A DNA stretch of 64,000 nucleotides. It comes from Trochalopteron elliotii (Eukaryota > Chordata > Aves > Passeriformes > Leiothrichidae). The DNA is taken from NCBI GenBank assembly GCA_024734555.1, contig JANPWX010000638.1:62001-126000 (forward strand). The letters run 5' to 3'. Made by a program: the position numbers and the translations under genes. This document shows, one piece after another, positions 1 through 62,975 of this stretch (the first letter of the stretch is position 1; each line of letters begins with the position of its first letter). Below the pieces are notes generated by a model. That model did not search any database. It worked only from the letters and a program-made list of their open reading frames with translations, and was not told where the DNA came from.

Positions 1-1023
1 ATTGCCACTTGGGTAGAGAAGCTACCTGTTAAAGTCCATCATGTAGATGCCCATGTCCCCAAGAGTAGAGCTAATGAGGAGCACTGAAACAACGGGCAGG
101 TAGATCAGGCTGCAAAGATAGAGGTGTCAAAGATAGACTTAGATTGGGAACACAAGGGAGAGTTGTTCCTAGCTCGATGGGCTCATGATGCCTCAGGTCA
201 TCAGGGCAGAGATGCCACCTATAAGTGGGCACGAGACCAAGGGGTGGATCTTACCATGGACAGTATTTCTCAGGTTATCCATGACTGTGACACATGTGCT
301 CCAGTCAAGCAGGCCAAGCGGGTGAAGCCCCTATGGTATGGTGGACGGTGGTCCAAATATAAGTATGGGGAGGCCTGGAAGATTGACTACATCACCCTTC
401 CCCAAACCCACCAAGGCAAGTGCTATGTGCTGACCATGGTGGAAGCCACCACTGGCTGGTTGGAGACCTATCCTGTGCCTCACACTTCTGCTCGGAACAC
501 CATCCTGGGCCTTGAAAAGCAAGTCCTTTGGAGGCATGGTGCCCCTGAGAGGATTGAGTCCGACAACGGGACTAATTTCAAGAAGAGCCTTATCAACACC
601 TGGGCTAGAGAACTGGCATTGAGTGGGTGTACCATATTCCTTATCACGCACCAGTGGTCAGGAAAGTTGAATGGTGCAATGGCCTGCTTAAAACCACCTT
701 GAAGGCACTGGGTGGGGGGACTTTCAAAAACTGGAAGATTAATTTAGCAAAGTCCACATGGTTTGTGAACACTTGAGGTTCCCTCAACTGAGTAGGCCCT
801 GCCCAGTCTGAGCCCTTGCAAACAACAGATGGAGATAAGGTTCCAGTGGTACACATGAGACATATGCTGGGAAAAACTGTTTGGATTAATTCTGCCTCCA
901 GCAAAGACAATCCCATCCGTGGGGTTGTCTTTGCTCAGGGACCAGGTTGCACCTGATGGATGATGCAAAAGGATGGAGAGACCCGATGCATACCTCAAGG
1001 GGACCTTGTTCTAGGGTGAACTA
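1..1023 (+). pseudogene. pol: V1: ERVL-type pol 3' part (RNase H end and integrase), broken
   Basis: The first ~120 bases encode the end of a retroviral RNase H and run into an integrase. The integrase zinc-binding histidines and cysteines are visible (HDASGH near codon 20 of the open stretch from 124, then CDTCA), followed by the catalytic-core aspartates in KIDYITLP and ESDNGT. A TGA interrupts the RNase H end near 88. A one-base frame change near 605-615 shifts the reading frame before the region of the catalytic glutamate, and the shifted frame stops at 700-702. The region aligns throughout with V10 (60890-61908) and is the less mutated copy. The pol end is near 1020, where a CTWWV-like tail is recognisable in degraded form. 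It is an inactive copy; the 5' part lies outside the window. Confidence 0.85.
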
Positions 1024-5307: not shown

Positions 5308-5328
5308 GGGTGTCATGGGCTCTATAAG
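5305..5328 (+). promoter_or_regulatory. Probable gag-pro UAG readthrough site (V2)
   Basis: UAG followed by GGG, with seven stop-free codons in the same frame leading to the protease. Gammaretroviruses make Gag-Pol by suppressing this stop. The same arrangement is seen in V5 (35919-35942, minus strand). A downstream pseudoknot was not modelled. Confidence 0.55.
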
Positions 5329-5750
5329 ATGGGGGACCCAAATAAATATCATGAAGAGCCCATTGTAAACCTAGAAGTGGGTCCCCACTATGAAGAAATT
5401 GAATTTCTTGTTGACACATGGGCGGAGAAATACAGTCTTAAACAGCTCCCTGCTGGATTGACAATAGGAAAAAGATTATGTGATGTTATAGGTGCAGAAG
5501 GGAAGCCCTTTAAAGCTCCTATAGTTGAGTGTGTAGAAGTCAGGGGAAATTCAAGGAGATATATCACAGATCTGATATACCTACCAAACACTGAGAAGAG
5601 CTTGTTAGGACGAGACTTGCAAGTGCAGCTGAGGGTGGGGATCATTCCAAAAGAGGGAAAAATGGTTGTACAAATGATGAGGTTAGCCATTGAAGATCTA
5701 GCTGAGATTAACACAAACGTATGGGCAGAAGAAGGGAAGTATGGCTACTT
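5308..5750 (+). pseudogene. pro: V2 protease and pol start, truncated
   Basis: In frame with gag. It encodes a retroviral aspartic protease, but the catalytic-loop motif reads LVDTWA rather than the LVDTGA of V5, so the conserved glycine after Asp-Thr is lost. The flap and the later GRD region are present. Homology to V5 ends at about 5750, just before the reverse transcriptase domain. The frame then runs into reversed ERVL sequence and stops at 5773-5775. The product would be inactive. Confidence 0.85.
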
Positions 5751-6288
5751 TGAACATCCACCCCAGCACTGGTAGTCGGGGTGCCAGGAGTTGTTGTGCT
5801 TCTGTGCCAATCACCTCCGAGGCAGCTTGGACTCCTTCATAGGCTGCTAAAATTTCCTTTTCTGTGGGAGTGTAGCTGGCTTCAGCCCCTCTGTAGCTTC
5901 GACTCCAGAATCCTAGTGGCTGGCCTCGAGTCTCCCCAGGCACCTTCTGCCAAAGGCTCCAGGACAGACCATGGCTCCCGGCTGCAGAGTAGAGCATGTT
6001 CTTCACCTCTAGTCCAGTCCTGACTGGGCCAAGGGCCACTGCATGAGCAATCTCCGGCTTGATCTGGGCAAAGGCTTGCTGCTGTTCAGGGCCCCAGTGG
6101 AAATCATTCTTCTTGCGGGTAACCGGGTAGAGAGGGCTCACGATCTCACTGTACTCAGGAATGTGCATTCTCCAAAAGCCTATGGCGCCTAGGAAAGCCT
6201 GTGTTTCCTTCTTGCTGGTTGGTGGAGACATGGCTGTAATCTTGTTGATGACGTCAGTAGGAATCTGACGCCATTCATCTTGCCACTT
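5751..6288 (-). pseudogene. pol: ERVL-type pol fragment (RT end and connection), antisense
   Basis: On the minus strand this matches V4 18244-18775 closely (about 97% by eye over the first 140 bases). It covers the end of reverse transcriptase and the connection region, with recognisable TFLGAIGFWR-like and GFWSRSY stretches. It has no LTR of its own. It is fused on the right to V2 and on the left to an unassigned segment (6289-6516). A 265-codon open frame crosses both joints, but its ends are unrelated to pol. Confidence 0.85.
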
Positions 6289-8564: not shown

Positions 8565-9501
8565 TGTTTTTTTCTAATTGGGTGAAAAAGGTCCGCATTG
8601 AGGACCTTGGGTGGTCAATTATTGGGTTAAAAGTATAAATAATATAGGTGTCACCTCATTATTGGAAGGTTTATGCTTTGTCCTGGTTTAGGGCAAATTT
8701 GGGAGGAAATCTCCGAATGGGGTTCCTCTGAAAAGCAAATCCAAACAGCCCCTCCCCCCAGCCGGTCCGGGGAAATAACTCCCCAGAGAAGAGTGGAAAA
8801 AAGCCTTATTTATTTAACAAACAAAATGCCCACAAGCATAAAGAATGAATAATAATAATAACAATAATAATAATATGAAACAATAAAACCTCTCGCTGCT
8901 CCGAAGAGAGATGGCAAAACTGAGAGTCTGTGTCAGGAGTCTGTTTATCAGTCCCTTCAGTGCTGGAAGATGCCGAGTCCCGGCCCGGTGGGCCACGGGT
9001 GCAAGATCCCGGTGCTCCTCTGGGTTTTTCAGTCCAGAGCAGATTTAAACAGTCCCAAAGAAAAATAAAATAAGAAAAAAAAAAAAACAAAACAGTCCAG
9101 GAAAGCTTCTTTGCCTCAGCTAGCTAGACTAACAGAAGGAAAAAAAAAAACTCTCTCTGGCTGCCCTCCGTGCATCCGACGAAGGAAAAAAAAAAGAAAC
9201 CACACAGTCCCAAGGACGAGAGCAGATTCAGAGGAGTGAGTTTGTTTCTCAAAACAAACTGCGCGCTTCTTCTTTCCCTGCTCACTCTCAGAACCAGTCT
9301 TAAAGGTACAGAACAGACGATTTGGGGATACATAGTCACCCTAGGACATGCTTAAATAACCTTGGAAAGAGAGACACCTCCATTTTCTACCTTGTTAGTT
9401 AGAGCTCACAACTCGTGAGATCGTATTATAGATAAGAATTAATAAACACTGGGTCCGAACATGAAAACTGTGACTCCTGTGTATTAATCCCGGCTCTAAC
9501 A
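8565..9501 (+). repeat. LTR-like arm, right copy, interrupted by ERVL solo LTR
   Basis: It starts near TGTTTTTTTC and ends CTCTAACA, about 262 bp without the insertion. An AATAAA occurs near 9441-9447 on the plus strand, consistent with an LTR in plus orientation. It pairs with 8197-8455 across a spacer of about 110-125 bp. The ERVL LTR inserted after this repeat formed. Confidence 0.6.
8679..9348 (-). repeat. Solo ERVL-type LTR with 5-bp target duplication
   Basis: 670 bp in minus orientation, TGTCCT to AGGACA with perfect 6-bp terminal inverted repeats. It is flanked by TGCTT on both sides (8674-8678 and 9349-9353). It is the same LTR type as in V4 and V10, including an ATT-type microsatellite (here near 8847-8876). 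A solo LTR with an intact duplication arises by recombination between the two LTRs of a former provirus. Confidence 0.93.
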
Positions 9502-14369: not shown

Positions 14370-15047
14370 TGTCCTAGGGTGACTATGATGCCTGTATCCC
14401 CACATCGTCTCTTCTGTGTTCTGTACCTTTAAGACTGGTTCTGAGAGTGAGCAGAGAAAGAAGAAGCGCGCAGTTTGTTTTGAGAAACAAACTCACTCCT
14501 CGGGATCTTCTCTCGTCCTTGGGACGGTGTGTCTTTTTTTTTCTTCTTCATCGGCTGCACGGATGGCAGCCAGAGAGAGTTTTTTCTTCCCTTTGTTAGT
14601 CTAGCTAGCTGAGGCAAAGAAGCTTTCCTGGACTTTTATTTTTTTCCCTTTTTTTCTTTGGGACTGTTTAAATCTGCTCTGGACTGAAAAACCCAGGGGA
14701 GCACCGGGATCTTGTGCCCGTGGCCCACCGGGCCGGGACTTGGCATTTTCCAGCGCCAAAGGGACTGGGACTGATAAACAGACTCCTGGCACAGACTCTC
14801 AGTTTTGCCATCTCTCTTTGGAGCGGCAAGAGGTTTTATTGTTTCATATTATTATTATTATTATTGTTATTGTTATTCATTCTTTATGCTTGTGGGCATT
14901 TTGTTTGTTAAATAAATAGGGGTTTTTTCCACTCTTCTCTGAGGGAGTTCTTTTCCTGGACCAGCTGGGGGGAGGGGCTGTTTGGATTTGCTTTCCAGAG
15001 GAACCCCATTCAGAGATTTCCTCCCAAATTTGCCCCAAACCAGGACA
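14370..15047 (+). repeat. V4 5' LTR
   Basis: 678 bp, TGTCCTAGGG to CCAGGACA. It contains an ATT-type microsatellite near 14850-14876 and an AAATAAATAGG polyadenylation region near 14910. It matches the V10 LTRs and the solo LTRs at 8679-9348 and 46342-46998. Confidence 0.93.
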
Positions 15048-15058
15048 TACATTAATAT

Positions 15059-15076
15059 TGGTGCCCAACTGCGGGG
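15059..15076 (+). other. V4 primer binding site, tRNA-Lys(1,2)-like
   Basis: TGGTGCCCAACTGCGGGG resembles the Lys-1,2 primer site used by spumaviruses and some betaretroviruses, with an extra base and a substitution. The V10 version (56657-56674) is a cleaner match. There are 11 bases between LTR and primer site in both copies, longer than the usual few. Confidence 0.5.
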
Positions 15077-15172
15077 CTCGAGAGAGTGGAAAAAACTTGT
15101 ATTGATTATTGAGTGCATTTTGGTTGTTCTTTGAGTGTGGATAGAGTAGCTAGATTGCCCCTTGAATCCCTA

Positions 15173-17164
15173 ATGTCTACTGGAATAGAGTCCTTCCTGT
15201 ATTTCTGTTCCCTAGGTTTCTTTGAGGTTCTAATACCTTTCTGGTCCCTAGGCTTGTTTTCTTATCCAGAATTAGCTCCAATGTTGTCCCTAACACATAG
15301 TTTTTACACTAGAGGTGCACAAATTAGGATTGCTATTTTGTTGGGTTCAGTGATCATGATTTATAGGAAGTTTATGAAGGTACTGGAGTTTGTGGCAGGT
15401 ATGTTTGGTTTATGGTTTCTTCGTCCTACCATGCGTCCTAGTTCCAGCAGCATGTTTTGGGGATTTATGAATAATTGCACCCACTTTGTTAGAGGAGGAA
15501 CAGGGGATGAAGCTTTTCAGTCTTTCCTGTCCCTCGTATCTTTTGAATCGGTCACATCACTTTTGGAGAATGTTCAGTGTCCCCTGAATGTTAAAGATAC
15601 CATCTTCCTGGTATTCCATTTGGTGAGCTTCCTCTATATGGTTTGCAGCTTGTCTAGAATGAGGTCTGAGATTTCCAGAGGGGCTGATGAGACCCCTGGC
15701 CCAGAAGTAGGCCCAGGTGTGGAAAATCCTGAGTGGAGTGGAGAATGGGAGGATATGGGCCAAACCCTGAAGGAATTTTCTGACCCTATAGCCTGGGATT
15801 TTCCATATGAACACATTCAGAACCCGGCTGAGGTGGGAAAATACTTGAAAGAGAAGTGCCAGGATAATTCCAAGGACAAAAGGATTGTTGCAATAATCTG
15901 GGCCCTGGCATATGCTTACTGCACACTGCTAGATAAAGTAGGGCAGCAGGTAGAGGCAGGGTGCCAGAAAAATAAATCAGCAGCCATGCCAGTCACTCAG
16001 ACAGCAGCTAAACCAGACAGTGAGCCTAAGCCCCTGGCAGTTGCCGGGGCAAAGAAGCACGCACAGAAAACCGATCGACCAGTGGACGATGATCCAGGTG
16101 AAGGACCCTCAATGCCTCCCGACGACACCCAATCAGACATCCAACCAACTGACACCCAATCAGAAGCTGACCAAACTGACACAAAGTCAGAAGCCCAACC
16201 AGCTGGCACAAGGTCAAATGCCCAACCAGCTGGCACACGGTCAGGAGCCACTATTGAGTCCTTTTCCCTGAAGGACCTTTGAGGCCTAAGAAAGGATTGC
16301 ACTCGACGACCAGATGAATCTATAATTAGTTGGTTAGTCCGTCTTTGGGATGCTGCAGGTGAGGCTACAATTCTGGACGGCACTGAAGCAAGGCATTTGG
16401 GATCCCTGTCACATGATCCGGTTATCGACCAAGGAATGATGAGGGAGGCTACCCCTTGTAGTCTTTGGGAACAGGTCCTAGGAAGTGTGGCACAAAGATA
16501 TCTATGTGCAGACGATCTCTATATGCAGCAAACCCAGTGGAAGACCATAGAACAAGGGATTCAACGCTTGAGAGAAATGGCAGTGGCGGAGATTGTCTTC
16601 TCAGATGACCTAAACACTAGGAACCCAGACTTGGTACCATGTACACCTGTGATGTGGTGAAAATTTGTACAACTTGGGCCACAAGAATACTCTTCTTCTT
16701 TAGCAATAATGAAGCGGGATGACATGGGGGAGAGCGTGCTGGATATGGCAAGGAAACTTCGAGCATATGCAGATGCTGTGCATGGCCCAACACATGCCAG
16801 AATCGCAGCCGTGGAAACCCGTCTGCAGAAATTAGAAAACAAAATAGAAGAAAATCACCATACACTCAGAGACAAGATTAAAGAGATGAAAGAGGGCTTT
16901 CTCCAAATCTCAGCAGTACAGGTCAGAGGTTCTGGCACCAAACGCAGACGTTCCCCAGAGAGAGAGGGAGGGGGCATCCCACGAGGTAAGCTGTGGTCCC
17001 TCCTGCATGATTGTGGAGAAGATATGATGAGATGGGATAGAAAATCTACCGATGATCTGGCACAACGGCTGCATGAACTGTTGGGCGGCAAGACTCAGAG
17101 AGGAAGTTCCACTAAGAAGGAAGCAGCTCCAGTTACCCAGGGACAAACAGATAACCAGGTTTAG
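15173..17164 (+). pseudogene. gag: V4 ERVL-type Gag, two internal stops
   Basis: The likely start is the ATG at 15173; the upstream GTG-initiated extension is unsupported. The frame runs to a TAG at 17162-17164 that V10 shares, with TGA stops at 16280-16282 and 16658-16660. V10 reads CGA at the first and CAA at the second position. The N-terminal ~110 residues are strongly hydrophobic (for example IAILLGSVIMIYR), then a second hydrophobic stretch (FLVFHLVSFLYMV). A tandem run of about 11-residue units with TDTQS or AGTRS lies near residues 315-360, a coiled-coil-like part near 530-590 and a basic RRRSPEREGGG stretch. No CCHC zinc knuckle was found, as in spumaviral and ERVL Gags. Confidence 0.8.
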
Positions 17165-18770
17165 AGGGGCCCTGCCTCTAGCCAGGTAGAGGCTAGGGAC
17201 AACCGTGTTTTTTGGACTGTGTGGATTCGTTGGCCTGGCACATCTGAACCACAAGAATATAAGGCCTTGGTCAATACTGGTGCACAGTGCACATTAATTC
17301 CATCAACACACGTAGGGGCAGAATCTGTCTCTATTGCTGGCGTGACAGGGGGATTACAGGATTTTACTTTGGTGGAAGCTGATGTTAGTCTGACTGGAAA
17401 TGAGTGGAAGAGGCAGCCTATTGTGACTGGCCCAGAGGCCCCATGCATTTTGGGCATAGACTACCTCTGAAATGGGTATTTCAAAGACCTGAAGGGATTC
17501 AGGTGGGCGTTTGGGATAGCGGCTGTAGTGACAGAGGGCATCCAGCAATTGAACACCTTGCCTGGACTGTCCGAGAATCCATTGACAGCAGGACTTCTGA
17601 AGGGGGAGGAGCAACAAGTACCAATTGCCACTTCAATAGTGCACCGCCTACAGTACAGAACAACTCGAGATGCCGTGATCCCCATCCACAAGATGATTTG
17701 TGAGCTGGAGAGTCAAGGGGTGGTCAGCAAAACCCACTCACCCTTCAACAGCCCCATCTGGCCTGTGCGAAAATCTGAAGGAGAATGGAGACTGACTGTG
17801 GACTATCGTGCCTTGAATGAAGTGACTCCACCGCTGAGCACTGCTGTGCCAGACATGCTGGAACGCCAGTACGAGCTGGAGTCCAAGGCAGCAAAATGGT
17901 ACGCCACTATTGACATTGCTAATGCATTTTTCTCCATTCCTCTGGCAGCAGAGTGCAGGCCTCAGTTTGCCTTTACATGGAGGGGAGTGCAGTACACCTG
18001 GAACCGACTGCCCCAGGGGTGGAAGCACAGTCCTACCATCTGCCATGGACTGATTCAGACTGCACTGGAAAAGGGTGAGGCTCCAGAACACCTACAGTAT
18101 ATTGATGACATCATTGTGTGGGGGAACACGGCAGCAGAAGTGTTTGAGAAAGGAAAAGAAATCATCCAGATCCTCCTGGAAGCTGGTTTCGCTATCAAGA
18201 AGAGTAAAGTTAAGGGACCAGCCCGTGTGATCCAGTTCTTGGGAGTAAAGTGGCAAGATGGATGGCGTCAGATTCCTACTGATGTCATCAACAAGATTAC
18301 AGCAATGTCTCCACCAACCAGCAAGAAGGAAACACAAGCTTTCCTAGGCGCCATAGGCTTTTGGAGAATGCACATTCCTGTGTACAGTGAGATCGTGAGC
18401 CCTCTCTACCCGGTTACCCGCATGAAGAATGATTTCCACTGGGGCCCTGAACAGCAGCACGCCTTTGCCCAGATCAAGCAGGAGATTGCTCATGCAGTGG
18501 CCCTTGGCCCAGTCAGGACAGGACCAGATGTGAAGAACATGCTCTACTCTGCAGCCGGGAGCCATGGTCTGTCCTGGAGCCTTTGGCAGAAGGTGCCTGG
18601 GGAGACTCGAGGACGACCACTGGGATTCTGGAGCCGAAGTTACAGAGGGTCTGAGGCTAATTACACTCTCACAGAGAAGGAAATTTTAGCAGCCTATGAA
18701 GGAGTCCAAGCTGCCTCAGAGGTAATAGGCACTGAAACACAACTCCTCCTGGCACCCCGACTACCGGTGC
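17165..18770 (+). pseudogene. pol: V4 protease and reverse transcriptase
   Basis: In the same frame as gag, after the shared TAG. The protease active-site loop reads LVNTGAQC, with asparagine where the catalytic aspartate is expected; V10 has the same asparagine. TGA at 17468-17470 stands where V10 has CGA. An uninterrupted reverse transcriptase follows, from the template-binding region (WRLTVDYRALN) through the catalytic QYIDDIIVWGN near 18100 to the thumb and connection. The YIDD motif is intact. The frame then runs into LTR sequence after 18770 and ends at 18842-18844. Confidence 0.88.
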
Positions 18771-18853
18771 TGGGGGGGAGGGGCTGTTTGGATTTGCTTT
18801 CCAGAGGAACCCCATTCGGAGATTTCCTCCCAAATTTGCCCTAAACCAGGACA
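18769..18853 (+). repeat. V4 3' LTR stub
   Basis: The final ~85 bp of the ERVL-type LTR (matching 14963-15047), ending AGGACA and followed by the target duplication CCTGT. The joint to pol lies in a shared GCTGGGG. Confidence 0.9.
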
Positions 18854-29513: not shown

Positions 29514-30181
29514 TGTGAAAAATTGGGCAGGAGACGATGTTTCCTCCTTTTAATGCCTTTTTTAAAGTATCAGCTCTTTTAGAAGCAGGCGCCTCAGGGG
29601 GGTGGGGTGGCCTCCACCGCAGTGCTGAGAAGGAGGCGGGGCTGGACACTCTGCTGCTGCACACAGCCGAGTGGGGAATTAGCCTCCCCCCTCACGGGAG
29701 CATGCTCCCGACAATTCCAGTCCAATGTGATTTCCACTGATGAGTCGGATGTTCAGACTGCTCCTCTGGTCACGGCGAGATCTAAAGGTCCTGGCACCAA
29801 TTGGCTTGTACTCTTCAGTCTTTATGGTTATTATTCTTTTTGTTTTAAGTTGTTGTTAAAGAGTCTTAATTACTGTTTGTTTTTGGAAGTTGTCCCGATT
29901 TTCCTGAGGTGTTGCATCCTGGGATCTTTAATTACCATAAGGGGTGTTAGTGTAGGAGACGGGGGCAGGGCAGGGGTGAGATAGCCAGGCCGAGTAGAGA
30001 GGTGGAGGAGTCTTACGTTGCCATGGAAACGACATTCTTGCTTGACAGGTCATGATATATTACAAACATGAGTACAAAGAGTTTTTAACATCTAACTTTA
30101 CAATTCTATAACTAATATAACTAATACTTTCTAAATCTATACTTTAACTTTTAGGAGTTGTTTTAAACTTTATTTTTCACA
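29514..30181 (-). repeat. V5 3' LTR
   Basis: 668 bp. The outer (left) end reads TGTGAAAAATT, where the 5' LTR has TGAGAAAAATT. It carries the X-box at 30017-30030 (GTTGCCATGGAAAC) and the 16-bp palindrome at 29695-29710. In the R region the AATAAA of V2 corresponds to an A-rich TTTAAAAAAGG here, so the polyadenylation signal appears altered in both V5 LTRs. Confidence 0.95.
30017..30030. promoter_or_regulatory. RFX-type X-box in V5 3' LTR
   Basis: GTTGCCATGGAAAC, an inverted pair of GTTNCC half-sites. The same site is at 38772-38785 in the 5' LTR and, on the opposite strand with one change per half, at 1765-1778 in V2. Confidence 0.5.
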
Positions 30182-30200
30182 ATTCCCTCCTCTCTCTATT
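30182..30200 (-). other. V5 polypurine tract
   Basis: The minus strand reads AGAGAGAGGAGGGAAT directly before the 3' LTR start, the expected plus-strand primer. Confidence 0.8.
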
Positions 30201-30239
30201 TGATCGGGCCTTTGCCCGCATCATTTTCTGTCGCTTGGT

Positions 30240-32237: not shown

Positions 32238-32362
32238 TATTAACTTTTAACAATAACACTTTAAAACTACTATAAAACTTGAAACACAAAACATAATAGA
32301 ACTTTTTACAATACACCAGCAACTTGTTCACTGTAAATACTTCTTATCAGTCTTTAGTCTTG

Positions 32363-35300: not shown

Positions 35301-35918
35301 GAATTTGTTCTCTCCTTTTTTGACAGCTAGGATGGGTGTGTTGTGAGGGGACCTGCAGGGCTCTAGGATTCCTGCCGCTAACAAGTTTGTTATAATTGGG
35401 GCTAATCCTTCCCTCCCCACTGTTGAGAGGGGATATTGTTTAACCCTTATTGGTGGTGTTCTCTCTGGTATGTTTACTTTTATAGGGGTGATGTTTAAGT
35501 AGCCATACTTTCCTTCTTCTGCCCATACGTTTGTGTTAATCTCAGCTAGATATTCAATGGCTAACCTCATCATTTGTACAACCATTTTTCCCTCTTTTGG
35601 AATGATCCCCACCCTCAGCTGCACTTGCAAGTCTCGTCCTAACAAGCTCTTCTCAGTGTTTGGTAGGTATATCAGATCTGTGATATATCTCCTCGAATTT
35701 CCCCTGACTTCTACACACTCAACTATAGGAGCTTTAAAGGGCTTCCCTTCTGCACCTATAACATCACATAATCTTTTTCTTATTGTCAATCCAGCAGGGA
35801 GCTGTTTAAGACTAGATTTCTCTGCCCCGGTGTCAACAAGAAATTCAATTTCTTCATAGTGGGGACCCACTTCTAGGTTTACAATGGGCTCTTCATGATA
35901 TTTATTTGGGTCTCCCAT
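32363..35918 (-). pseudogene. pol: V5 protease-pol, one frame change
   Basis: Minus strand. The frame continues from gag through UAG. The protease loop LVDTGAEKSS is intact. The reverse transcriptase shows LVQDLREVNK, TVIDLKDAFW and the catalytic QYVDDLLVSG. The frame changes near 34795-34812 in a run of A (minus strand); downstream the second frame is open to the end. RNase H has FTDGSS and IYTDSQYAFG. The integrase has zinc residues (HWG, CPLCQK) and the D-D-E set in IQIDF, DSDRGPHF and GRVERMN. The C-terminal domain has GDWVLIK and FEGPF. Apart from the single break every expected domain is present; an assembly error in the homopolymer is possible. Confidence 0.92.
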
Positions 35919-35939
35919 TTTATAGAGCCCATGACACCC

Positions 35940-37096
35940 CTAATCTTCTTTATTTTCTCCTCTCAACCATTTCTCGAGGGTTTCCTGTTCTCTTACTATC
36001 CTTTCATCAAGGATGGCCTTTTTGCATTCTCTCCTGAGGTGCCCTTCTTCTCCACAGTAAAAACAGGTTCTTGTTTCTCCTGGTCTCGGGGCAGTATTCC
36101 AAGGTAACACCCTTCTTCCCCTTCCTTGTCCTAGTGGAGGTCTTGTGCCGTCTCCACTCTGAGGGTTTTTACTATCATCTTTATTGTTCACTAAGTCTTT
36201 TACACTCTCTCTTGCTACTGCTACCATACTCTTCGTTTTTGTTCTAGTTTTCTCTCCTTCTCTTCTCAAGTACACTTTCAATGCCTCTCTCGCTAATTCA
36301 TTTATCTCCCTTTCTTGCCAATCTTCAAGCTTCTCTAGCTTCCTCCAGATATCTGGCCAGGATTTTGTTGTTTGTTGGTGTAACAGGTAGGGTGAAATGA
36401 AAGGGGTTAGTTTGTGAAATGGGGGAATTAGGTTGTGGGGGACATGGTAGTGATGGGGAGGGCAATGGAGGGGCTGAGGAGGCAGGGGGTGAAATCGTAG
36501 GGGACACCCCTATTGTGGAGCTGGCAGATGGAGGAGTTAGTAGTGGAGGGGTTGGGGCTGTTAGTGGGGAGGAATAGAGTGGAGTGGTTGGGGGCAAAGT
36601 TGGAGGACTAATGGGTAACGGGAGGATTGCTAGGCTGTATTTGTGGAACTTGTGGGTATACTGGGGGAGGAGGAGATAGATGGTCAAGAGGGTTTCACTG
36701 CTTATTTTCTTCTTTCCTCTTCGCTTTCTCATCTACTTTCTCTTTCAACTTACAAATTTTTGTCACCTCTTCTTTAGACGTGCTGTTCTGCCAACAAGTA
36801 GCATAGCGTATTTGCTCACTACAGGTGTTTTCCTGAGCTTTCAAATATTGATTTAACTGATCACACATCCACAAATCTGTGGTTCTACACCATGGCCACT
36901 GGTTAGATAAATTTAAAGTTGGCCAAACTTCAACACAATAATGGATCATTTTGATCCTACTTAGATCTTTAGTTTTATCATTACTTTCCCATGATTCTAA
37001 CATTTGCCCTAGTGGGCTTTCTGGTGGGATGTTCTTAATCTTGTTACTTTCCTCTACTTCTCTCTTTTTTCTTGTCTTGCTCTTGCATCCACCCAT
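35940..37096 (-). pseudogene. gag: V5 gag, capsid deleted
   Basis: Minus strand, ATG at 37096 giving MGGCKSK as in V2. A TGA near 36695 stands where V2 has TGG, a frame change follows in the proline-rich part, and then about 0.7 kb corresponding to V2 4176-4879 is absent. This removes the end of the linker and most of capsid. The break point shows a short AACAA-type overlap. The rest, with the zinc knuckle CFYCGEEGHLRREC, continues in frame to TAG at 35940-35942. It cannot encode a working capsid. Confidence 0.9.
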
Positions 37097-38248
37097 TTTC
37101 ACTCCACACTCACACTGGTACCCGTAGGTAGCCCATAAGACTCGCCCTCAGAGTCTCGGCCACTACCCCCGCCAGTACCCACACTCAGGAGCCCCGGAAG
37201 CAGTCTGGAAGACCCGCCCTTAGGGTCTCAGCCCCTGCCCCTGCAAGCCCCGTGGTACTCGGGAATGGTCTGGTTCCTGCCCCCCTACTTTTTAGGGCCC
37301 AGCCACCACCCCAGCCAGTACCCTCTTGCGCCCCTGTACACCAGGCAGTCCCCGTTAGACAGCCGATATGCCCGGGCCCTGGGGGTCAGCACTGCCTACT
37401 GCCAGGACTGGGTGTACAGTGTGTAGCTCACTCACTCACCCTACTGCCAAGCTTCCTACACCAGCTGAAACTTGTTTCCCTACCTCTCATGTTCGGTTGA
37501 TACACCTCTCTCTAAGTGCCTATCGACCCCTGTCACGCTGCACCCCGTGTAGGTCACCCCAGCCAGTATCCACGGGTTCTGAAAGATCAAGCACTCCTCC
37601 CGCCTTGAGTTACTCTGAACTCCCTGAACTTGCGCAGTGTGTGCTTATCCCCGACACCCGCAGACCCCCGGGCCGTGCCTCGGCCAGTGCTCTCAAACAC
37701 TCCCCACACGTTGAGCTATCCTAAGCTCCCGGTACTAGTGTGGTACGTGCCTCACGCACTTGCCCTCAGCCTTCCCGCACGCTTGGGACGGCCTCGGTGG
37801 CCCACCCCCGTTGGGAGGGCCTCCCCCACAAACAGCCTCTCACGGGCCACTCACACCCTAGGTTTCCCCCGCCCACTCGGAGGGGGGCCTCTAAGCCCCT
37901 GGGAGCGCTTTAGTCACTCACTTCCTCCTTTTCCCGATGGGCTCCTTTGCAGGAGTCACCACACGGTACTCAGAAGCCACGCTCACTCAGGGGGGGCCCA
38001 GGATGGTCCCTCCCCACACTCACTCGCCTCCCGCCACTAGGTCTTACCGAGTGCTCCTCAGCAGTGTATAGCTCTTCCTGGTGCTCCGCAGCAATGTCCC
38101 ACGATGCTAGAGAGCGATGCTAGAGAGCGTGGTTTTCTTGATCCGGGGTGGGGGCCAGCATTCCCAGAGGTTCGGAGCCAGATGACTTCCACTTCTGTCC
38201 ACTTCTGTCCTCTTCTGTCCTCTTCTATCCTCTTCTGGGTGTGGCCAC
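37097..38248 (-). other. V5 untranslated leader
   Basis: Homologous to the V2 leader (2297-3435) on the opposite strand, about 1.15 kb. It has a C-rich look on the plus strand. No open frame of interest. Confidence 0.75.
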
Positions 38249-38266
38249 TCCCGGGTTTCGGCACCA
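38249..38266 (-). other. V5 primer binding site, tRNA-Phe
   Basis: The minus strand reads TGGTGCCGAAACCCGGGA, identical to the V2 site, two bases inside the 5' LTR. Confidence 0.92.
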
Positions 38267-38268
38267 TC

Positions 38269-38936
38269 TGAGAAAAATTGGGCAGGAGACGATGTTTCCT
38301 CCTTTTCATGCCTTTTTTAAAGTATCAGCTCTTTTAGAAGCAGGTGCCTCAGGGGGGTGGGGTGGCCTCCACCGCAGTGCTGAGAAGGAGGCGGGGCTGG
38401 ACACTCTGCTGCTGCACACAGCCGAGTGGGGAATTAGCCTCCCCCCTCACGGGAGCATGCTCCCGACAATTCCAGTCCAATGTGATTTCCACTGATGAGT
38501 CAGATGTTCAGACTGCTCCTCTGGTCACGGCGAGATCTAAAGGTCCTGGCACCAATTGGCTTGTACTCTTCAGTCTTTATGGTTATTATTCTTTTTGTTT
38601 TAAGTTGTTGTTAAAGAGTCTTAATTACTGTTTGTTTTTGGAAGTTGTCCCGATTTTCCTGAGGTGTTGCATCCTGGGATCTTTAATTACCATAAGGGGT
38701 GTTAGTGTAGGAGACGGGGGCAGGGCAGGGGTGAGATAGCCAGGCCGAGTAGAGAGGTGGAGGAGTCTTACGTTGCCATGGAAACGACATTCTTGCTTGA
38801 CAGGTCATGATATATTACAAACATGAGTACAAAGAGTTTTTAACATCTAACTTTACAATTCTATAACTAATATAACTAATACTTTCTAAATTTATACTTT
38901 AACTTTTAGGAGTTGTTTTAAACTTTATTTTTCACA
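38269..38936 (-). repeat. V5 5' LTR
   Basis: 668 bp, minus strand TGTGAAAAAT to ATTTTTCTCA. It carries the X-box (38772-38785) and the palindrome (38450-38465). It differs from the 3' LTR at five single bases. The outer end adjoins the target duplication GACT at 38937-38940. Confidence 0.95.
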
Positions 38937-48344: not shown

Positions 48345-48991
48345 TGTGATAGATATGATGATAAATTCATGCAATTAAAGGTAGAAGTTATAATAAATGT
48401 AGTAGATGATAGAATGTATATTTTTGTAACCCTGTAAATGTAAGACTAACCCTGGTTCCTGGAATGGGGCAGGCGTTTCCCAAATACCGGGATATGCTTT
48501 GTGAACTGTAAATGTACAAGTTAACACCTTGATTTACACCAGAAAGGAGGGTGGCTTGCCAGGATGTGTCTCCTTGAGCTAATCAGATCTTGGGCACCTG
48601 GACCATCAACCCACCATCAACCCACGATACCCATTTCGAGGGTGGACCCTGAATTTGAAGACATCATCATCCCAAAAGAGGATTCCGGGAAAATCCTTTC
48701 AGACATGGTCCAGCACCTGGAAATCTGTTCAGGATTCATCACCAAGTGAAAAGACTGAGTTTGAATTTGAAGACACAATACCTCTGCTGCCGGGAGGCAC
48801 AAAATACAGCATGAGAACCCGAGCCCAAACACCAGCAAATGGTGGAACAGTGCGAAATAGCAGCCCTGCTGTCGGTCGTCTGTTTCACCCAACATTCGAA
48901 TGTTGTTTTCGTGGCTGTCCCAGATAGATTTTTAAAATGGAAAAATAAAATTTATTCTCTTTATCCGATTGACTACTTTTCACTTATAACA
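48345..48991 (+). repeat. V9 5' LTR
   Basis: 647 bp, TGTGATAGAT to TTATAACA. An AAAATAAAATTT polyadenylation region is near 48943. It is closely matched by 55655-55952 and, in its second half, by 62734-62975. Short open frames inside it are not genes. Confidence 0.9.
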
Positions 48992-55654: not shown

Positions 55655-55952
55655 TGTGATAGATATGATTATAAATTCGTGAAATTAAACGTAGAAACTA
55701 AAATAAATGTAGTAGATGATAGAATGTATATTTTTGTAACCCTGTAAATGTAAGACTAACCCTGGTTCCTGGAATGGGGCAGGCGTTTCCCAAATACCAG
55801 GACATGCTTTGTGAACTGTAAATGTACAAGTTAACACCTTGATTTACACCAGAAAGGAGGGTGGCTTGCCAGGATGTAGCTCCTTGAGCTAATCAGATCT
55901 TGGGCACCTGGACCATCAACCCACCATCAACCCATCAATACCAATTTCGAGG
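55655..55952 (+). repeat. V9 3' LTR, left part
   Basis: It matches 48345-48650 and ends at TTTCGAGG, where V10 begins. The last ~105 bp (from CCAGAAAGG) are repeated after V10 at 62734. Confidence 0.9.
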
Positions 55953-56444
55953 TGTTTTAGGGTGACTATGATGCCTGTATCCCCACATCGTCTGTTCTGT
56001 GTTCTGTACCTTTAAGACTGGTTCTGAGAGTGAGCAGGGAAAGAAGAAGCGTGCAGTTTGTTTTGAAAAACAAACTCACTCCTCTGAATCTGCTCTCGTC
56101 CTTGGGACTGTGTGGTTGTTTTTTTCTTCTTTCGTCGGATGCACGGAGGGCAGCCAGAGAGAGTATTTTTTTTTCCCTTTGTTAGTCTAGCTAGCTGAGG
56201 CAAAAAAGCTTTCCTGAACTGGTTTTTTTTTTCCTTTTTTTCCTTTGAGACTGTTTAAATCTGCTCTGGACTGAAAAACCCAGAGAAGCACCGGGATCTT
56301 GCACCCGTGGCCCACCGGGCCGGGACTCGGAATTTTCCAGCACCGAAGAGACTGAGACTGATAAACAAACTCCTGGCACGGACTCTCAGTTTTGCCATCT
56401 CTCTTCGGAGCGGCGAGAAGTTTTATTGTTTCATATTATTATTA

Positions 56445-56479
<35 letters not shown>

Positions 56480-56645
56480 TCTTTATGCTTGTGGGCATTT
56501 TGTTTGTTAAATAAATAGGGTTTTTTCCACTCTTCTCTGAGGGAGTTCTTTCCCCGGACCGGCTGAGGGGAGGGGCTGTTTGGATTTGCTTTCCAGAGGA
56601 ACCCCATTCAGAGATTTCCTCCCAAATTTGCCCTAAACCAGGACA
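55953..56645 (+). repeat. V10 5' LTR
   Basis: 693 bp, TGTTTTAGGG to CCAGGACA. The ATT/GTT microsatellite near 56436-56475 is the longest of all copies. Few G-to-A changes are visible here. Confidence 0.93.
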
Positions 56646-56656
56646 TACATTAATAT

Positions 56657-56674
56657 TGGTGCCCAATGTGGGGC
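56657..56674 (+). other. V10 primer binding site, tRNA-Lys(1,2)-like
   Basis: TGGTGCCCAATGTGGGGC differs from the Lys-1,2 site in two C-to-T positions. Eleven bases separate it from the LTR. Confidence 0.55.
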
Positions 56675-56769
56675 TGGAGAGAGTAGAAAAAACTTGTATT
56701 GATTATTGAGTGCATTTTGGTTGTTCTTTGTGTGGGAATAGAGTAGCCATGTTGCCCCTTGAATCCCTA

Positions 56770-58738
56770 ATGTCTATTAGAATAAAGTCCTTACTGTATT
56801 TCTGTTCCCTAAGTTTCTTTGAAGTTCTAATTCCTTTCTGGTCCCTAAGCTTGTTTTCTTATCCAGAATTATCTCCAATGTTGTCCCTAACACATAGCTT
56901 TTACACTAGAGGTGCACAAATTAGGATTGCTTTTTTGTTAAGTTTAGTGATCATGATTTATAGAAAGTTTATGAAGGTACTGGAGTTTGTGGCAGGTATG
57001 TTTAGTTTATGGTTTCTTCATCCTACCATGCGTCCTAGTTCCAGCAGCGTGTTTTAAAGATTTATGAATAATTGCACCCACTTTGTTAGAAGAGGAACAG
57101 GAGATGAAGCTTTTCAGTCTTTCCTGTCCCTCGTATCTTTTGAATCGGTCACATCACTTTTAAAGAATGTTCAGTGTCCCCTGAATATTAAAGATACCAT
57201 CTTCCTGGTATTCCATCTGGTGAGCTTCCTCTATATAGTTTATAGCTTGTCTAGAGTGAAGTGTGAGATTTCCAGAAGGGCTGATAAGACCCCTGACCCA
57301 GAAGGAGGCCCAAGTGTAGAAAATCCTGAGTGGAGTAGAAAATAAAAAGATATGAGCCAAACCCTGAAAGAATTTTCTAACCCTATAGCCTGAGACTTTC
57401 CATGTGAACACATTCAGAACCCGGCTGAGGTGGGAAAATACTTGAAAAAGAAGTGCCAAAATAATTCCAAAAACAAAAAGATTGTTGCAATAAGCTGAGC
57501 CCTGGCATATGCTTACCGCACACTGCTAGATAAAGTAGGGCAGCAGGTAGAGGCAGAGGGCCAAAAAAATAAATCAGCAGCTAAACCAGACAGTGAGCCT
57601 AAGCCCCTGGCAGTTGCTGGGGCAAAGAAGCACGCACAGAAAACCGATCAACCAGTGGACTATGATCCAAATGAAAGACCCTCAACAATACCTCCCGACG
57701 ACACCCAATCAGACATCCAACCAACTGACACCCAATCAAAAGCCGACCAAACTGACACAAAATCAAAAGTCCAACCAGCTAGCACAAAGTCAAATGTCCA
57801 TCCCACTGGCACACAATCAAAAACCACTATTGAGTCCGTCTCCCTGAAGGACCTTCGAAGCCTAAAAAAAAATTACACTCAACGACCAGATGAATCTGTA
57901 ATTAGTTGGTTAGTCCGTCTTTAAGATGCTGCAGGTGAAGCTACAATTCTAGACGGCACTGAAGCAAAGCATTTAAGATCCCTGTCACATGATTCAGTTA
58001 TTAACCAAAGAATGATGAGGGAGGCTACCCCTTGCAGTCTCTGGAAACGGGTCCTGGGAAGTGTAGCACAAAAATATCTATGTGCAGACAAACTCTATAT
58101 GCAGCAAACCCAGTAGAAGACCATAAAACAAGAAATTCAGCACTTGAAAAAAATAGCAGTGGCAAAAATTGTCTTCTAGGATAACCTAAACACTAAAAAC
58201 CCAGACTTGGTACCATGTACACCTGTGATGTGGCAAAAACTTGTACAACTTAAGCCACAAGAATACTCTTCTTCTTTAGCAATAATGAAGCGGAATGACA
58301 TGGGGGAGAGCATGCTGGATATGGCAAGGAAACTTCGAGCATATGCAGATGCTGTGCATGGCCCAACACATGCCAGAATCGCAGCCGTGGAAACCCGTCT
58401 GCAGAAATTAGAAAGCAAAATAGAGGAGAATCACCATACACTCAGAGATGAGATTAAAGAGATGAAGGAGGGCTTTCTCCAAATCTCAGCAGTACAGGTC
58501 AGAGGTTCTGGCACCAAACGCAGACATTCCCCAGAGAGAGAGGGAGGGGGCATCCCACGAGGTAAGCTGTGGTCCCTCCTGCATGACTGTGAAAAAGATA
58601 TGAAGAGAAAAGATAGAAAATCTACCAATGATCTGGCACAACAGCTGCGTGACTTGTTAGACAGCAAGACTCAGAGAAGAAGTTCCACTAAGAAAGAAGT
58701 AGCTCCAGTCACCCACAGACAGACATAACCAAGTTTAG
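56770..58738 (+). pseudogene. gag: V10 ERVL-type Gag, hypermutated
   Basis: It is homologous to V4 gag from the ATG at 56770 to the shared TAG at 58736-58738. Stops by tryptophan codon change (TGG to TAG, TGA or TAA) are frequent, for example near 57054-57059, 57394, 57921 and 58115. A small deletion precedes the end. The hydrophobic N-terminus, the TDTQS-type repeats and the coiled-coil part are recognisable. 58290-58580 is nearly free of changes. Confidence 0.85.
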
Positions 58739-61700
58739 AGGGGCCCAGCCTCTAGCCAAGTAGAGGCTAGGGACAACCTTGTTTTTTGAACTATGTAAAT
58801 TCGTTAGCCTGGCACATCTGAACCACAAGAATATAAAACCTTGGTCAATACTGGTGCACAGTGCACATTAATTCCATCAACACATGTAGGAGCAGAATCT
58901 GTCTCTATCGCTGGCGTGACAGGGGGATCACAGGATTTTACTTTAGTAAAAACTAATGTTAGTCTGACTAAAAATGAGTAGAAAAAGCACCCTATTGCAA
59001 CTGGCCCAGAGGCCCCATGCATTCTGGGCATAGACTACCTCCGAAATAAGTATTTCAAAAACCCAAAGAAATTCAAGTGAGCGTTTAAGATAGCAGCTGT
59101 AGTGATAGAGAGTGTTAAACAATTGAACACCTTGCCTAGACTATCAGAAAACCCATCTGCTGTAAAACTTCTGAAGGGGGAAGAACAACAAGTGCCAATT
59201 GCCACTTCAACAGTGCATCACCGACAGTATAAAACAACTTGAGATGTCGTGATCCCCATCCACAAGATGATTTGTGAGCTGGAGAGTCAAGGGGTGGTCA
59301 GCAAAACCCACTCACCCTTCAACAGCCCCATCTAGCCGGTGCGTAAATCTAAAAAAAAAATAGAAATTAACTGTGAACTATCGTGCCTTGAATGAAGTAA
59401 CTCCACTGCTGAGCGCTGCTGTGCCAGACATGTTGGAGCTCCAGTACGAGCTGGAGTCCAAGGCAGCAAAGTGGCACGCCACTATTGACATTGCTAATGC
59501 ATTTTTCTCCATTCCTTTAGCAGCAGAATGCAGGCCTCAGTTTGCCTTTACGTAGAGGGGTGTACAGTACACTTAGAACCAATTACCCCAAGAGTGGAAG
59601 CACAATCCTACCATCTGCCATGAACTGATTCAGACTGCACTAGAAAAAAGTAAAGCTCCAGAACATCTGCAGTACATCGATGACATCATTGTGTGAGGGA
59701 ATACTGCAGCTAAAGTGTTTGAGAAAAGAGAGAAGATCATCCAGATTCTGCTGAAAGCTGGATTCGCTATCAAAAAAAGCAAAGTTAAGAGACCTGCTCA
59801 AGAGATCCAGTTCCTGAGAATTAAGTAAAAAAATAGACGGCGTCAGATTCCTACTGATGTCATCAACAAGATCACAGCAATGTCTCCACCTACCAAAAAG
59901 AAGAAGAAAACACAAGCTTTCCTAAGTGCCATAAGTTTTTGGAGAATGCATATCCCTGAGTACAACCAGATTGTAAGTCCTCTACCTGGTTACCCGCAAA
60001 AAAACCACTTTCCACTAAAGCCCTGAATAGCAACACACCTTTGCCCAGATCAAGCAAGAGATTGCTCATGCAGTGGCCCTTGGCCCAGTCAGGACAGGAC
60101 CAGATGTAAAGAACGTGCTCTACTCTGCAGCCAAGAGCCATAGTCTGTCCTAGAGTCTTTAGCAGAAGGTGCCTAGACAGACTCAAAGACGATTCTAGAG
60201 CCAAAGTTACAAAGAGTCTGAAGCCAATTACACTCCCACAAAAAAGAAAATTTTAGCAGCCTATAAAAGAGTCCAAGCTGCCTCAAAAGTAATAAGCACT
60301 GAAACACAACTCCTCCTGGCACCCCAACTACCGGTGCTGGGGTAGATGTTTAAAGCAGAAGTTCCCTCTACCCACCATGCCACCAATGCTACATGGAGTT
60401 AGTAGATTGCTGTCATCACACAGCGGGCTTGTATTAGAAAACTGAATTGCCCTGAAATTTTAGAAATAATTACAAATTAGCCTGAAGGTAAAAACTTTAG
60501 TCTCACAGATGAAGAGGAGCAAAAACCAGTGACACGTGCTGAAGAAGCTCCACCATACAACCAACTGCCAGCAGAAGAAACACCCTACACTCTTTTCACT
60601 GATGGTTCCTGTCACATCGTGGGGATGAACCGGAAGTGAAAAGCAGCTGTGTGGAGCCCCACACGACAAGTCGCTGAGGCCACAGAAAAAGATAGTAAAT
60701 CAAGCCAACTTACTGAACTCAAAGCTGTTCAATTGGCCCTGAACATTGCTAAAAGAGAGAAGTGGCCAAAGCTCTACCTCTATACTGATTCATAGATGAT
60801 AGTCAATGCTTTATGGAGATGGTTGAAAAAGTAGAAAAAAGCTAACTGGCAGCATAGAAAAAAACCAATTTGAGCTGCCGAAGAGTAGAAAAACATTGCC
60901 ACTCAAATAGAAAAGCTACCTATAAAAATCTGTCATGTAGATGCCCATGTCCCCAAGAGTAGAGCTAATGAGGAGCACCAAAACAATGAGCAGGTAGATC
61001 AAGCTGCAAAAATAAAGGTGTCAAAAATAAACTTAGATTAGCAACACCAAGAAGAGTTGTTCCTAGCTCAATAAGCTCATGATGCCTCAAGTCATCAAAG
61101 CAAAGATGCCACCTATAAGTAAGCAAAAGACTGAAGGGTAAACCTAACTATAAACAGTATTTCTCAAGTTATTCATAACTGTAACACATGTGCTGCAATC
61201 AAGCAGGCCAAGCAAATGAAGCCCCTATGGTATAGTGAACAGTAGTCCAAATATAAGTATAAAGAAGCCTAGCAAATTAATTATATCACACTACCCCAGA
61301 CACGTCAAAGTAAGCACTACGTGCTCACAATGCTAGAAGCCACCACGGGGTGGCTAAAAACCTACCCTGTGCCTCATGCTACAGCCCGTAACACCATTCT
61401 AAGCCTTGAAAAGCAAGTTCTTTAGAAGCATAGTACCCCTGAAAAAATTGAGTCAAACAATGGGACTCATTTCAAAAATAACCTTATCAATACCTGAGCT
61501 AAAGAACATAGCATTGAGTGGGTGTACCATATCCCCTACCATGCACCAGCTACTGGAAAAATAGAAAGATTCAATAAACTGTTAAAAACCACCTTGAAAG
61601 CATTGAGTGAGGGATCTTTCAAGAACTAAGAGCAGCATCTGGCAAAAGCCACCTAGTTAGTTAACACCCGAGGTTCCACCAACAGAGCAGGCCCTGCCCA

Positions 61701-61908
61701 GTCTGAGCTCCTGCATACAGTAGATAAAGTCCCTGTAGTACATGCAAGAAGTTTGTTAAAAAAAACAATTTAAATCAAATCCACCTCAAGTACAGACAAA
61801 CCCATCCGTGGGATTGTCTTTGCTCAAAGACCAGGTTGTACATGGTGGGTAATACAAAAAAATAAAACAACACGATGTGTACCTCAGGGAGATCTGATTG
61901 TTAGATAA
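58739..61908 (+). pseudogene. pol: V10 protease, reverse transcriptase, RNase H and integrase, hypermutated
   Basis: In order: a protease with LVNTGAQC (same asparagine as V4); a reverse transcriptase with QYIDDIIV intact but a stop in the next tryptophan codon (59690s); a connection region; an RNase H with FTDGSC; integrase zinc residues; and a core whose first catalytic aspartate reads asparagine (LINYIT where V1 has KIDYIT). It ends TAA at 61906-61908. Stops are too many to list. It is the only copy showing the whole ERVL-type pol in the window. Confidence 0.88.
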
Positions 61909-62068
61909 GAACCATGTATACATATCACCTTTTGTTGAATGTCACTGCCATTGTCTTTATATAGCTGTATATTGTTTTTATATAGATATATGCATGCATA
62001 ATGTGTGTTTGTAGAGTTAGAATTCAATTAGTTTTGATAAGTTGATGATATGGTGATAAGAGGTGGAA

Positions 62069-62733
62069 TGTCCTAGGGTGACTATGATGCCTGTATCCCC
62101 ACATCGTCTGTTCTGTGTTCTGTACCTTTAAGACTGGTTCTGAGAGTGAGCAGGGAAAGAAGAAAAACAAACTCACTCCTCTGAATCTGCTCTCGTCCTT
62201 GGGACTGTGTGGTTGTTTTTTTCTTCTTTCATCGGATGCACGGAGGGCAGCCAGAGAGAGTATTTTTTTTCCCCTTTGTTAGTCTAGCTAGCTGAGGCAA
62301 AAAAGCTTTCCTGAACTGTTTTTTTTTTTCCTTTTTTTCCTTTGAGACTGTTTAAATCTGCTCTGGACTGAAAAACCCAGAGAAGCACCGGGATCTTGCA
62401 CCCGTGGCCCACCGGGCCGGGACTCGGCATTTTCCAGCACCGAAGAGACTGAGACTGATAAACAAACTCCTGGCACGGACTCTCAGTTTTGCCATCTCTC
62501 TTCGGAGCAGCGAGAAGTTTTATTGTTTCATATTATTATTATTGTTATTATTATTATTATTATTCATTCTTTATGCTTGTGAGCATTTTGTTTGTTAAAT
62601 AAATAGGTTTTTTTCCACTCTTCTCTGAGGGAGTTCTTTCCCCAGACCAGCTGGGGAGAAGGGCTGTTTAGATTTGCTTTTCAGAAGAACCCCATTCAGA
62701 GATTTCCTCCCAAATTTGCCCTAAACCAGAACA
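62069..62733 (+). repeat. V10 3' LTR
   Basis: 665 bp, TGTCCTAGGG to CCAGAACA, following a purine-rich AAGAGGTGGAA. It lacks about 20 bp near 62163 that the 5' LTR has. Its last ~100 bp carry several G-to-A changes relative to the 5' LTR, including in the terminal AGGACA. Confidence 0.92.
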
Positions 62734-62975
62734 CCAGAAAGGAGGGTGGCTTGCCAGGATGTAGCTCCTTGAGCTAATCAGATCTTGGGCACCTGGACCA
62801 TCAACCCATCGATACCCATTTCGAGGGTGGACCCTGAATTTGAAGACATCATCATCCCAAAAGAGGATTCCCGGAAAATCCTTTCAGACATGGTCCAGTA
62901 CCGGGAAATCTGTTCAGGATTCATCACCAAGTGAAAAGACTGGGTTTGAATTTGAAAACACAATACCTCTGCTGC
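62734..62975 (+). repeat. V9 3' LTR, right part, cut by gap
   Basis: It starts CCAGAAAGGAGGG and matches 48540-48794. The first ~100 bp duplicate 55848-55952 but lack a 12-bp repeat (ACCATCAACCC-like) present there. Confidence 0.88.

What the first reader, a model, noticed from the sequence alone, without database searches (positions are those of the whole stretch)
55953..62733. Strand-specific G-to-A hypermutation of an ERVL-type provirus
Compared by eye over about 480 bases (V4 16280-16760 against V10 57850-58330), I counted about 39 positions with G in V4 and A in V10, against about 5 A-to-G, 2 C-to-T, 5 T-to-C and 2 transversions. Most are in GG or GA. The same bias is seen in the integrase against V1 (124-700). 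Knisbacher and Levanon reported APOBEC-type editing of LTR elements in birds, although birds lack APOBEC3. Strand bias and density argue for editing of minus-strand cDNA before integration rather than CpG decay.
Basis: partly seen in the sequence, partly recalled or inferred. Interest (0 to 1): 0.88.

Follow-up and report, generated by a model that had tools for sequence, protein, structure and literature searches.

The report
Songbird retrovirus fossil hypermutated while copied
In a songbird genome, an old retrovirus copy has G replaced by A at more than a third of the sites where G is followed by A or G, on one strand only, likely by a host DNA-editing enzyme (probably of the APOBEC1 kind) acting while the virus was being reverse transcribed; such editing was already reported for birds, but here the two ends of the provirus also appear to record when it happened.

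Summary
Over the interior, against one unedited copy of the family in the same genome, V10 has 359 G>A against 27 A>G, 32 C>T, 21 T>C, at GG (193/409) and GA (127/450), not GC (22/288) or GT (17/280): odds ratio 8.1, p=2.5e-43. CpG does not explain it. In 12 of 12 counted proviruses taken as edited, the 3' LTR has more G>A than its own 5' LTR (187:26; four controls 18:14), as expected if the displaced minus strand of the 3' LTR is exposed twice. Three of 12 carry C>T only at the 5' LTR tip. The genome has an AID-like and two APOBEC1-like genes, the likely editors; which one is untested. Bird LTR editing is already published. The 'ERVL' label is unsettled.

The parts
55953..56645 (+). 5' LTR of V10; plus-strand CC>TT at LTR positions 4-5, absent from its own 3' LTR
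56657..56674 (+). primer binding site, 11 bases after the LTR end; 16 of 18 bases identical to the tRNA-Lys1,2 site printed in PMC8775094
   Evidence: sequence; reference site
56646..62068 (+). hypermutated interior (gag, RT/RNase H and integrase regions, broken by stops): 359 G>A in 5359 aligned columns against an unedited copy
59364..59552 (+). open fragment matching reverse transcriptase (PF00078, E=1.1e-5, 25.7 bits, below the curated cut-off of 29.6)
60895..61895 (+). region aligned to V1 1-1006, whose open part matches the integrase core (PF00665); overlaps the most edited 600-base bin (58 of 96 GR sites)
62069..62733 (+). 3' LTR of V10; 10 sites are G in the 5' LTR and A here against 1 the other way; 8 of the 10 lie at 5'-LTR position 542 or beyond
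14370..18779 (+).
1..1006 (+). V1, more diverged relative (77.6% identical) of the V10 integrase region
5757..6288 (-). third copy of part of pol, used to set the direction of change
8679..9348 (-). LTR of the family with a 5-bp target duplication (TGCTT), used to polarise LTR changes
55849..55952 (+). left copy (104 bp) of an unusually long repeat of host DNA flanking V10
62734..62826 (+). right copy (93 bp) of the flanking host repeat; single in the related stretch 48539-48641

Best explanation
V10 is a provirus whose plus strand carries a dense, one-sided burst of G-to-A changes at GG and GA, likely made in one reverse-transcription cycle by a host cytidine deaminase, probably an APOBEC1-type enzyme, acting on single-stranded minus-strand cDNA before integration. 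Shown here: strand bias, dinucleotide context, direction, gradient, LTR-pair asymmetry, other edited copies in the same genome, and a host cluster with an AID-like and two APOBEC1-like genes. Inferred: minus-strand C is deaminated to U wherever it stays single-stranded; early edits in the minus-strand LTR are copied into both LTRs; after plus-strand transfer the minus strand of the 3' LTR is displaced, exposed again and edited again, giving edits in the 3' LTR only; the plus-strand tip of the 5' LTR is briefly exposed and occasionally gets C-to-T. Untested: which enzyme did it.
For: Hypermut-type test against the unedited copy L003: GG 193/409, GA 127/450, GC 22/288, GT 17/280, odds ratio GR:GY 8.1, p=2.5e-43; the reverse comparison V10 to V4 has no such bias (GR 11/406, GY 17/368). 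Non-CpG G>A 216/919 against non-CpG C>T 30/755. Gradient in V10: logistic slope 0.18 per kb, p=1.8e-4; positive with p<0.005 in 7 of 8 hypermutated copies. LTR pairs: 5'G/3'A 187 against 5'A/3'G 26 in 12 proviruses, 12 of 12 in the same direction; 5'C/3'T to 5'T/3'C 21:31; four control pairs 18:14. 5'-LTR-only C>T at LTR positions 4-5 in V10, L001 and L021: 5 of 18 such events, among 147 C, p=3.4e-6. 39 of 63 TGG codons in frames open in an unedited copy are stops in V10. Overlap of V10 edits with those of seven other edited copies is 1.14 to 1.30 times that expected by chance within trinucleotide class, so they look like separate events at shared hot spots. Host deaminases: six PF08210 matches, five of them in one contig with an AID-like and two APOBEC1-like genes.
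Against: No enzyme was tested, and human APOBEC1 is recalled as preferring other contexts than CC. L001 shows no gradient, and the weakly edited L019 shows a slight one (p=0.016). The 3' excess is weak in L001 (4:2), L033/34 (7:5) and L035/36 (6:4). Two of the four controls lean the same way at low counts (L003 3:1, L006 5:1). 292 of 332 V10 GR edits are also A in at least one of 19 other copies, and 20 are A in two or more of seven unedited copies, so not every G-to-A is a private edit. The second exposure of the 3' LTR is inferred from the textbook model. GGG is edited less than GGA, unlike what I recall for human APOBEC3G. The flanks are too poor in changes to show that editing stops at the ends.
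Confidence: 0.93

Rival explanations
1. Decay after integration: methyl-CpG deamination and ordinary mutation raised A over time.
For: CpG sites do change more often (G in CpG 23/67 in V10; G after C 65/519 in seven unedited copies).
Against: 216 of 239 G>A lie outside CpG and non-CpG C>T on the same strand is low (30/755), while decay acts on both strands. LTR differences within proviruses lean one way.
Confidence: 0.02
2. V10 belongs to an A-rich viral lineage, so the G/A differences are inherited subfamily differences.
For: 20 of 332 V10 GR edits are also A in two or more of seven unedited copies, and 292 of 332 are A in at least one of 19 other copies, many of them edited.
Against: Third copy and V4 agree against V10 at 37 G>A; overlap with each edited copy is only 1.14-1.30 times chance; edits in one LTR only cannot come through the RNA.
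Confidence: 0.03
3. Reverse transcriptase error or an unbalanced nucleotide pool produced G-to-A changes without a deaminase.
For: It would also act on minus-strand synthesis and give strand bias; such hypermutation is recalled from HIV work.
Against: Errors made while the minus strand is copied should appear in both LTRs and show no gradient with exposure; a gradient and 3'-LTR-only changes are seen.
Confidence: 0.04
4. The AID-like enzyme, not an APOBEC1-type enzyme, was the editor.
For: An AID-like gene lies in the same contig.
Against: AID's recalled hot spot WRC would give G>A before C or T on the plus strand; those are the least edited contexts (GC 117/2194, GT 100/2136 against GG 972/3198, eight edited copies).
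Confidence: 0.08

Closest known systems
APOBEC editing of LTR retrotransposons in birds (Knisbacher and Levanon 2016; not held, seen only as cited in PMC6523648 and PMC6497032, passages read)
   Same: G-to-A clusters on the plus strand of LTR elements; cited as strongest in birds, especially oscine passerines such as zebra finch.
   Different: Here single proviruses are dissected: context, gradient, LTR pairs, plus-strand tip and host genes. I could not check how far that paper went.
mA3 editing of endogenous murine leukaemia viruses (Jern, Stoye and Coffin 2007, PMC2041998; passages read)
   Same: Strand bias, editing just before integration, 5'-to-3' gradient, stops made by editing.
   Different: Mouse APOBEC3 with a TTC context; the word LTR does not occur in its main text as searched.
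APOBEC3G hypermutation of HIV-1 (PMC4488724, PMC3310730; passages read)
   Same: GG preference, TGG to stop, gradient tied to time spent single-stranded (PMC3310730 adds that gradients are not always evident).
   Different: APOBEC3 is described as specific to eutherian mammals (PMC5399452, abstract in listing); GGG is the least edited GG context here; the edits sit in germline copies.
Editing of lizard L1 elements with APOBEC1 as candidate (Lindic et al. 2013, PMC3880073; passages read)
   Same: Non-mammalian G-to-A editing with an APOBEC1 homologue as candidate; mentions a zebra finch A1.
   Different: LINE elements; no significant editing of lizard LTR elements was reported there.

Membership tests
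APOBEC-type hypermutated provirus | G>A far above C>T on the plus strand | tested here: met
   359 against 32; non-CpG test p=9e-33
APOBEC-type hypermutated provirus | Preferred downstream base (Hypermut-type test) | tested here: met
   GR against GY odds ratio 8.1, p=2.5e-43
APOBEC-type hypermutated provirus | Change assigned to the tested copy by third sequences | tested here: met
   37 G>A of 56 V10-private changes in 501 columns
APOBEC-type hypermutated provirus | Gradient following single-strand exposure | tested here: met
   slope 0.18/kb, p=1.8e-4 in V10; 7 of 8 edited copies, not L001
APOBEC-type hypermutated provirus | Editing confined to the element | tested here: inconclusive
   flanks: 4 G>A, 1 A>G, 0 C>T in 299 columns and 2, 1, 2 in 241, too few to judge
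APOBEC-type hypermutated provirus | Identified deaminase able to do it | not testable with these tools
   candidate genes found, no assay
APOBEC1 (host genes L043, L044) | Sequence family and zinc motif | tested here: met
   both exceed the PF18769 APOBEC1 cut-off, though other AID/APOBEC profiles score higher; best solved match is APOBEC-1 6x91 for both; HAE and PCxxC are in the exons
ERVL | tRNA-Leu primer site (recalled) | tested here: not met
   primer site resembles that for tRNA-Lys1,2, 16 of 18 bases
ERVL | 5-bp target duplication (recalled) | tested here: inconclusive
   5 bp at several relatives, but V10 itself has about 100 bp
ERVL | Pol phylogeny within class III | not tested
   the listed relatives of the V4 RT frame that carry a name are bird proteins without a class label

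The most novel reading that the evidence does not exclude
The two LTRs of each edited provirus are a time-stamped record of one reverse-transcription event: shared edits mark the first exposure of the minus strand, 3'-LTR-only edits its second exposure after plus-strand transfer, and CC-to-TT at the very tip of the 5' LTR exposure of the plus strand. In songbirds the editor is a second, diverged APOBEC1 paralogue that took over the role of APOBEC3G. A side effect is that LTR divergence overstates the age of edited insertions about twofold (V10: K 0.029 with, 0.014 without the ten one-sided sites).
Probability: 0.35. Interest if true: 0.72.

Novelty: new member of a known kind. Interest (0 to 1): 0.52.

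Why it matters
It gives a clear single-provirus case of deaminase restriction in an animal group said to lack APOBEC3, names two concrete candidate enzymes beside an AID-like gene, and offers a footprint (LTR-pair asymmetry) that separates editing during reverse transcription from later mutation and that biases LTR dating. The question of which enzyme defends birds against retroviruses becomes directly testable.

Tried and rejected
Rejected: CpG decay, A-rich lineage, RT error, and AID as sole editor (see rivals). I considered that the edited LTR tips caused the long flanking duplication of V10, but L001 has an edited 5' tip and an edited 3' end with a 5-bp duplication GGGGT, so I dropped it. 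NCBIfam, made for bacteria and archaea, gave nothing for the four deaminase exons. The AID-like exon L042 does not match the Pfam AID profile even at E 10, but its best solved matches are AID (E=1.3e-53 and 6e-52). Paper searches returned nothing; the forms '5 ltr' and '3 ltr' in one search may not match the printed forms. The Knisbacher-Levanon and Suspene papers are not held. Pairs dropped before the LTR count: L027/28 and L029/30 (no LTR at the predicted 5' place) and L020 (two possible 5' LTRs, 17:10 and 29:11). Of the 12 pairs counted, V10, L001, L010 and L012 were tested as hypermutated; the other eight were taken as edited because they stand high in the integrase search with V10, not tested separately. 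In one search the 5' LTR bin of L001 fell on another LTR and is not used.
Full report
The observation. V10 spans 55953-62733 and has two LTRs. Over the V4 interior the figures are 239, 28, 39, 35 and 52 in 3694 columns. A third copy in the window shows that the change happened in V10: of 56 V10-private changes in 501 columns 37 are G>A.

The genome. The window lies in a held assembly of 1.04 Gb. A 481-base query from V10 gave 376 candidates, of which 40 were scored: V10, V4 and 38 others at 89-90% identity. I fetched 20 of these regions. They are among those most like V10, so the share of edited copies among them is not a genome estimate. Against the unedited copy L003, V10 shows 359 G>A, 27 A>G, 32 C>T, 21 T>C and 47 transversions in 5359 columns. 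Of the 19 other copies, seven are hypermutated at p<1e-6 in the same test (L001, L004, L009, L010, L012, L018, L020; L004 more strongly than V10, GG 166/301); L006, L013, L014 and L019 reach p between 0.0002 and 0.03 (L006 without a G>A excess, 32 against 47 A>G); eight show nothing at 0.05.

Context. In V10 GG 193/409, GA 127/450, GC 22/288, GT 17/280. Pooled over eight edited copies, V10 included, the order is GGA 413/1084, GGT 193/599, GGC 191/647, GGG 175/868, then GA 673/3494, GC 117/2194 and GT 100/2136; in seven unedited copies GG is 76/2248 and GA 60/2460. On the minus strand this is (T)CC, then TC. Plus-strand C>T at CC is the rarest C>T class by preceding base (43/2541), so the interior shows no editing of the plus strand at the favoured context. 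Leaving out CpG, G>A is 216/919 against 30/755 C>T (V4 to V10).

Gradient. In V10 the edited share of GR sites is 20/70 in the first 600 interior bases, 58/96 at offset 4880 and 35/85 after it, with 11/96 in the 5' LTR and 16/91 in the 3' LTR. The logistic slope is positive in 7 of 8 edited copies (p<0.005) and absent in L001; L006, L008 and L011 are flat, L019 is weakly positive (p=0.016). This is the pattern reported for endogenous MLV and HIV-1, where it follows the time the minus strand stays single-stranded (PMC2041998, PMC4488724; passages).

LTR pairs. In V10, 10 sites are G in the 5' LTR and A in the 3' LTR, against 1 the other way. With V4 and the LTR at 8679-9348 as outgroup, seven edits shared by both LTRs lie at positions 253-467 and seven 3'-only edits at 542-690, all before A or G; an AATAAA signal is at 558, so most 3'-only edits lie in or near what should be U5. 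With two other outgroup LTRs the 3'-only list also has position 182 and the shared list positions 331 and 648, so the split by position is not absolute. Eleven further proviruses agree in direction: L012 22:1, L023/24 55:5, L031/32 25:0, L025/26 17:1, L039/40 15:4, L021/22 9:0, L037/38 9:2, L010 8:1, L033/34 7:5, L035/36 6:4, L001 4:2. With V10 the sum is 187:26, while 5'C/3'T to 5'T/3'C is 21:31; the control pairs L003, L006, L011 and L015 give 3:1, 5:1, 6:5 and 4:7, sum 18:14. Eight of the 12 were taken as edited from their place in the integrase search. A change in one LTR only cannot come from the RNA parent, because both LTRs are made from one template. My explanation, inferred from the standard model of reverse transcription, is a second exposure of the minus strand of the 3' LTR when it is displaced after plus-strand transfer.

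Plus-strand tip. V10 and L001 have CC>TT, and L021 one C>T, at positions 4-5 of the 5' LTR, while their 3' LTRs keep CC; 5 of 18 5'-only C>T events fall on these two of 147 C (p=3.4e-6), none of the ten 3'-only ones do. I read this as exposure of the plus-strand end; plus-strand editing near there in HIV-1 is recalled, not looked up.

Consequence. Three frames open in an unedited copy hold 63 TGG codons aligned to V10; 39 are stops there, and V10 has 44 stops in them in all. V10 was therefore very likely unable to make its own proteins. LTR distance falls from 0.0291 to 0.0137 when the ten one-sided sites are left out.

Separate events. For seven other edited copies, the number of sites edited in both that copy and V10 is 1.14 to 1.30 times the number expected within trinucleotide class; 292 of 332 V10 edits are A in at least one of 19 other copies, as expected if hot spots are hit again and again, and 20 are probably family polymorphisms.

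The editor. PF08210 gives six matches: one on C1672 (best Pfam match APOBEC2) and five on C439: three at one place (one of them with a stop inside the matched stretch) and two separate exons. The exon L042 matches AID best among solved structures, though not the Pfam AID profile. L043 and L044 both match APOBEC-1 6x91 best. Their nearest named relatives are songbirds: Zosterops, Leiothrix, Illadopsis and Chamaea for L043, Locustella and Chamaea for L044, so the host is most likely a sylvioid songbird (the name of that group is recalled). A tree of 41 rows, picked by me from those lists, places L043 in a bird-only group (support 89/99) with a cassowary row and L044 in another (96/93) that also holds turtle and lizard rows; the tool warns about the long AID and APOBEC2 branches. 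That one of the two APOBEC1-like enzymes edited V10 is a proposal.

Membership and novelty. I file V10 as an APOBEC-type hypermutated provirus. I do not file it as ERVL: its primer site looks like that for tRNA-Lys1,2 and pol phylogeny was not run. Bird LTR editing is published. The LTR-pair signature did not appear in the titles, abstract starts or passages that I saw from searches (15 of 37 listed), 59, 64 and 76, which cover an open-access library only.

Noticed in passing
55849-55952 and 62734-62826: V10 is flanked by a repeat of about 100 bp of host DNA (75 bp identical; lengths differ by 11 bp) that is single in the related stretch 48539-48641, instead of the 5-bp duplication seen at several relatives. 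It may be an uncoordinated integration; L003 has no clear duplication at all.
   Followed up: partly
56646-56656: Eleven bases separate the LTR end from the primer site in V10 and V4, more than the few that I recall as usual.
   Followed up: no
29514-38936: A second ERV family with 668-bp LTRs 99.25% identical, and no G-to-A bias against its relative at 1157-5764: a young, unedited neighbour.
   Followed up: partly
L043 and L044 (G000 contig C439): Two APOBEC1-like genes in one contig with an AID-like gene; relatives of each are listed from many birds, passerine and not.
   Followed up: partly
L035/L036: One provirus pair has 75 shared LTR G>A, the heaviest shared LTR editing seen.
   Followed up: no
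62976 onward: A run of N begins shortly after the V10 flank.
   Followed up: no
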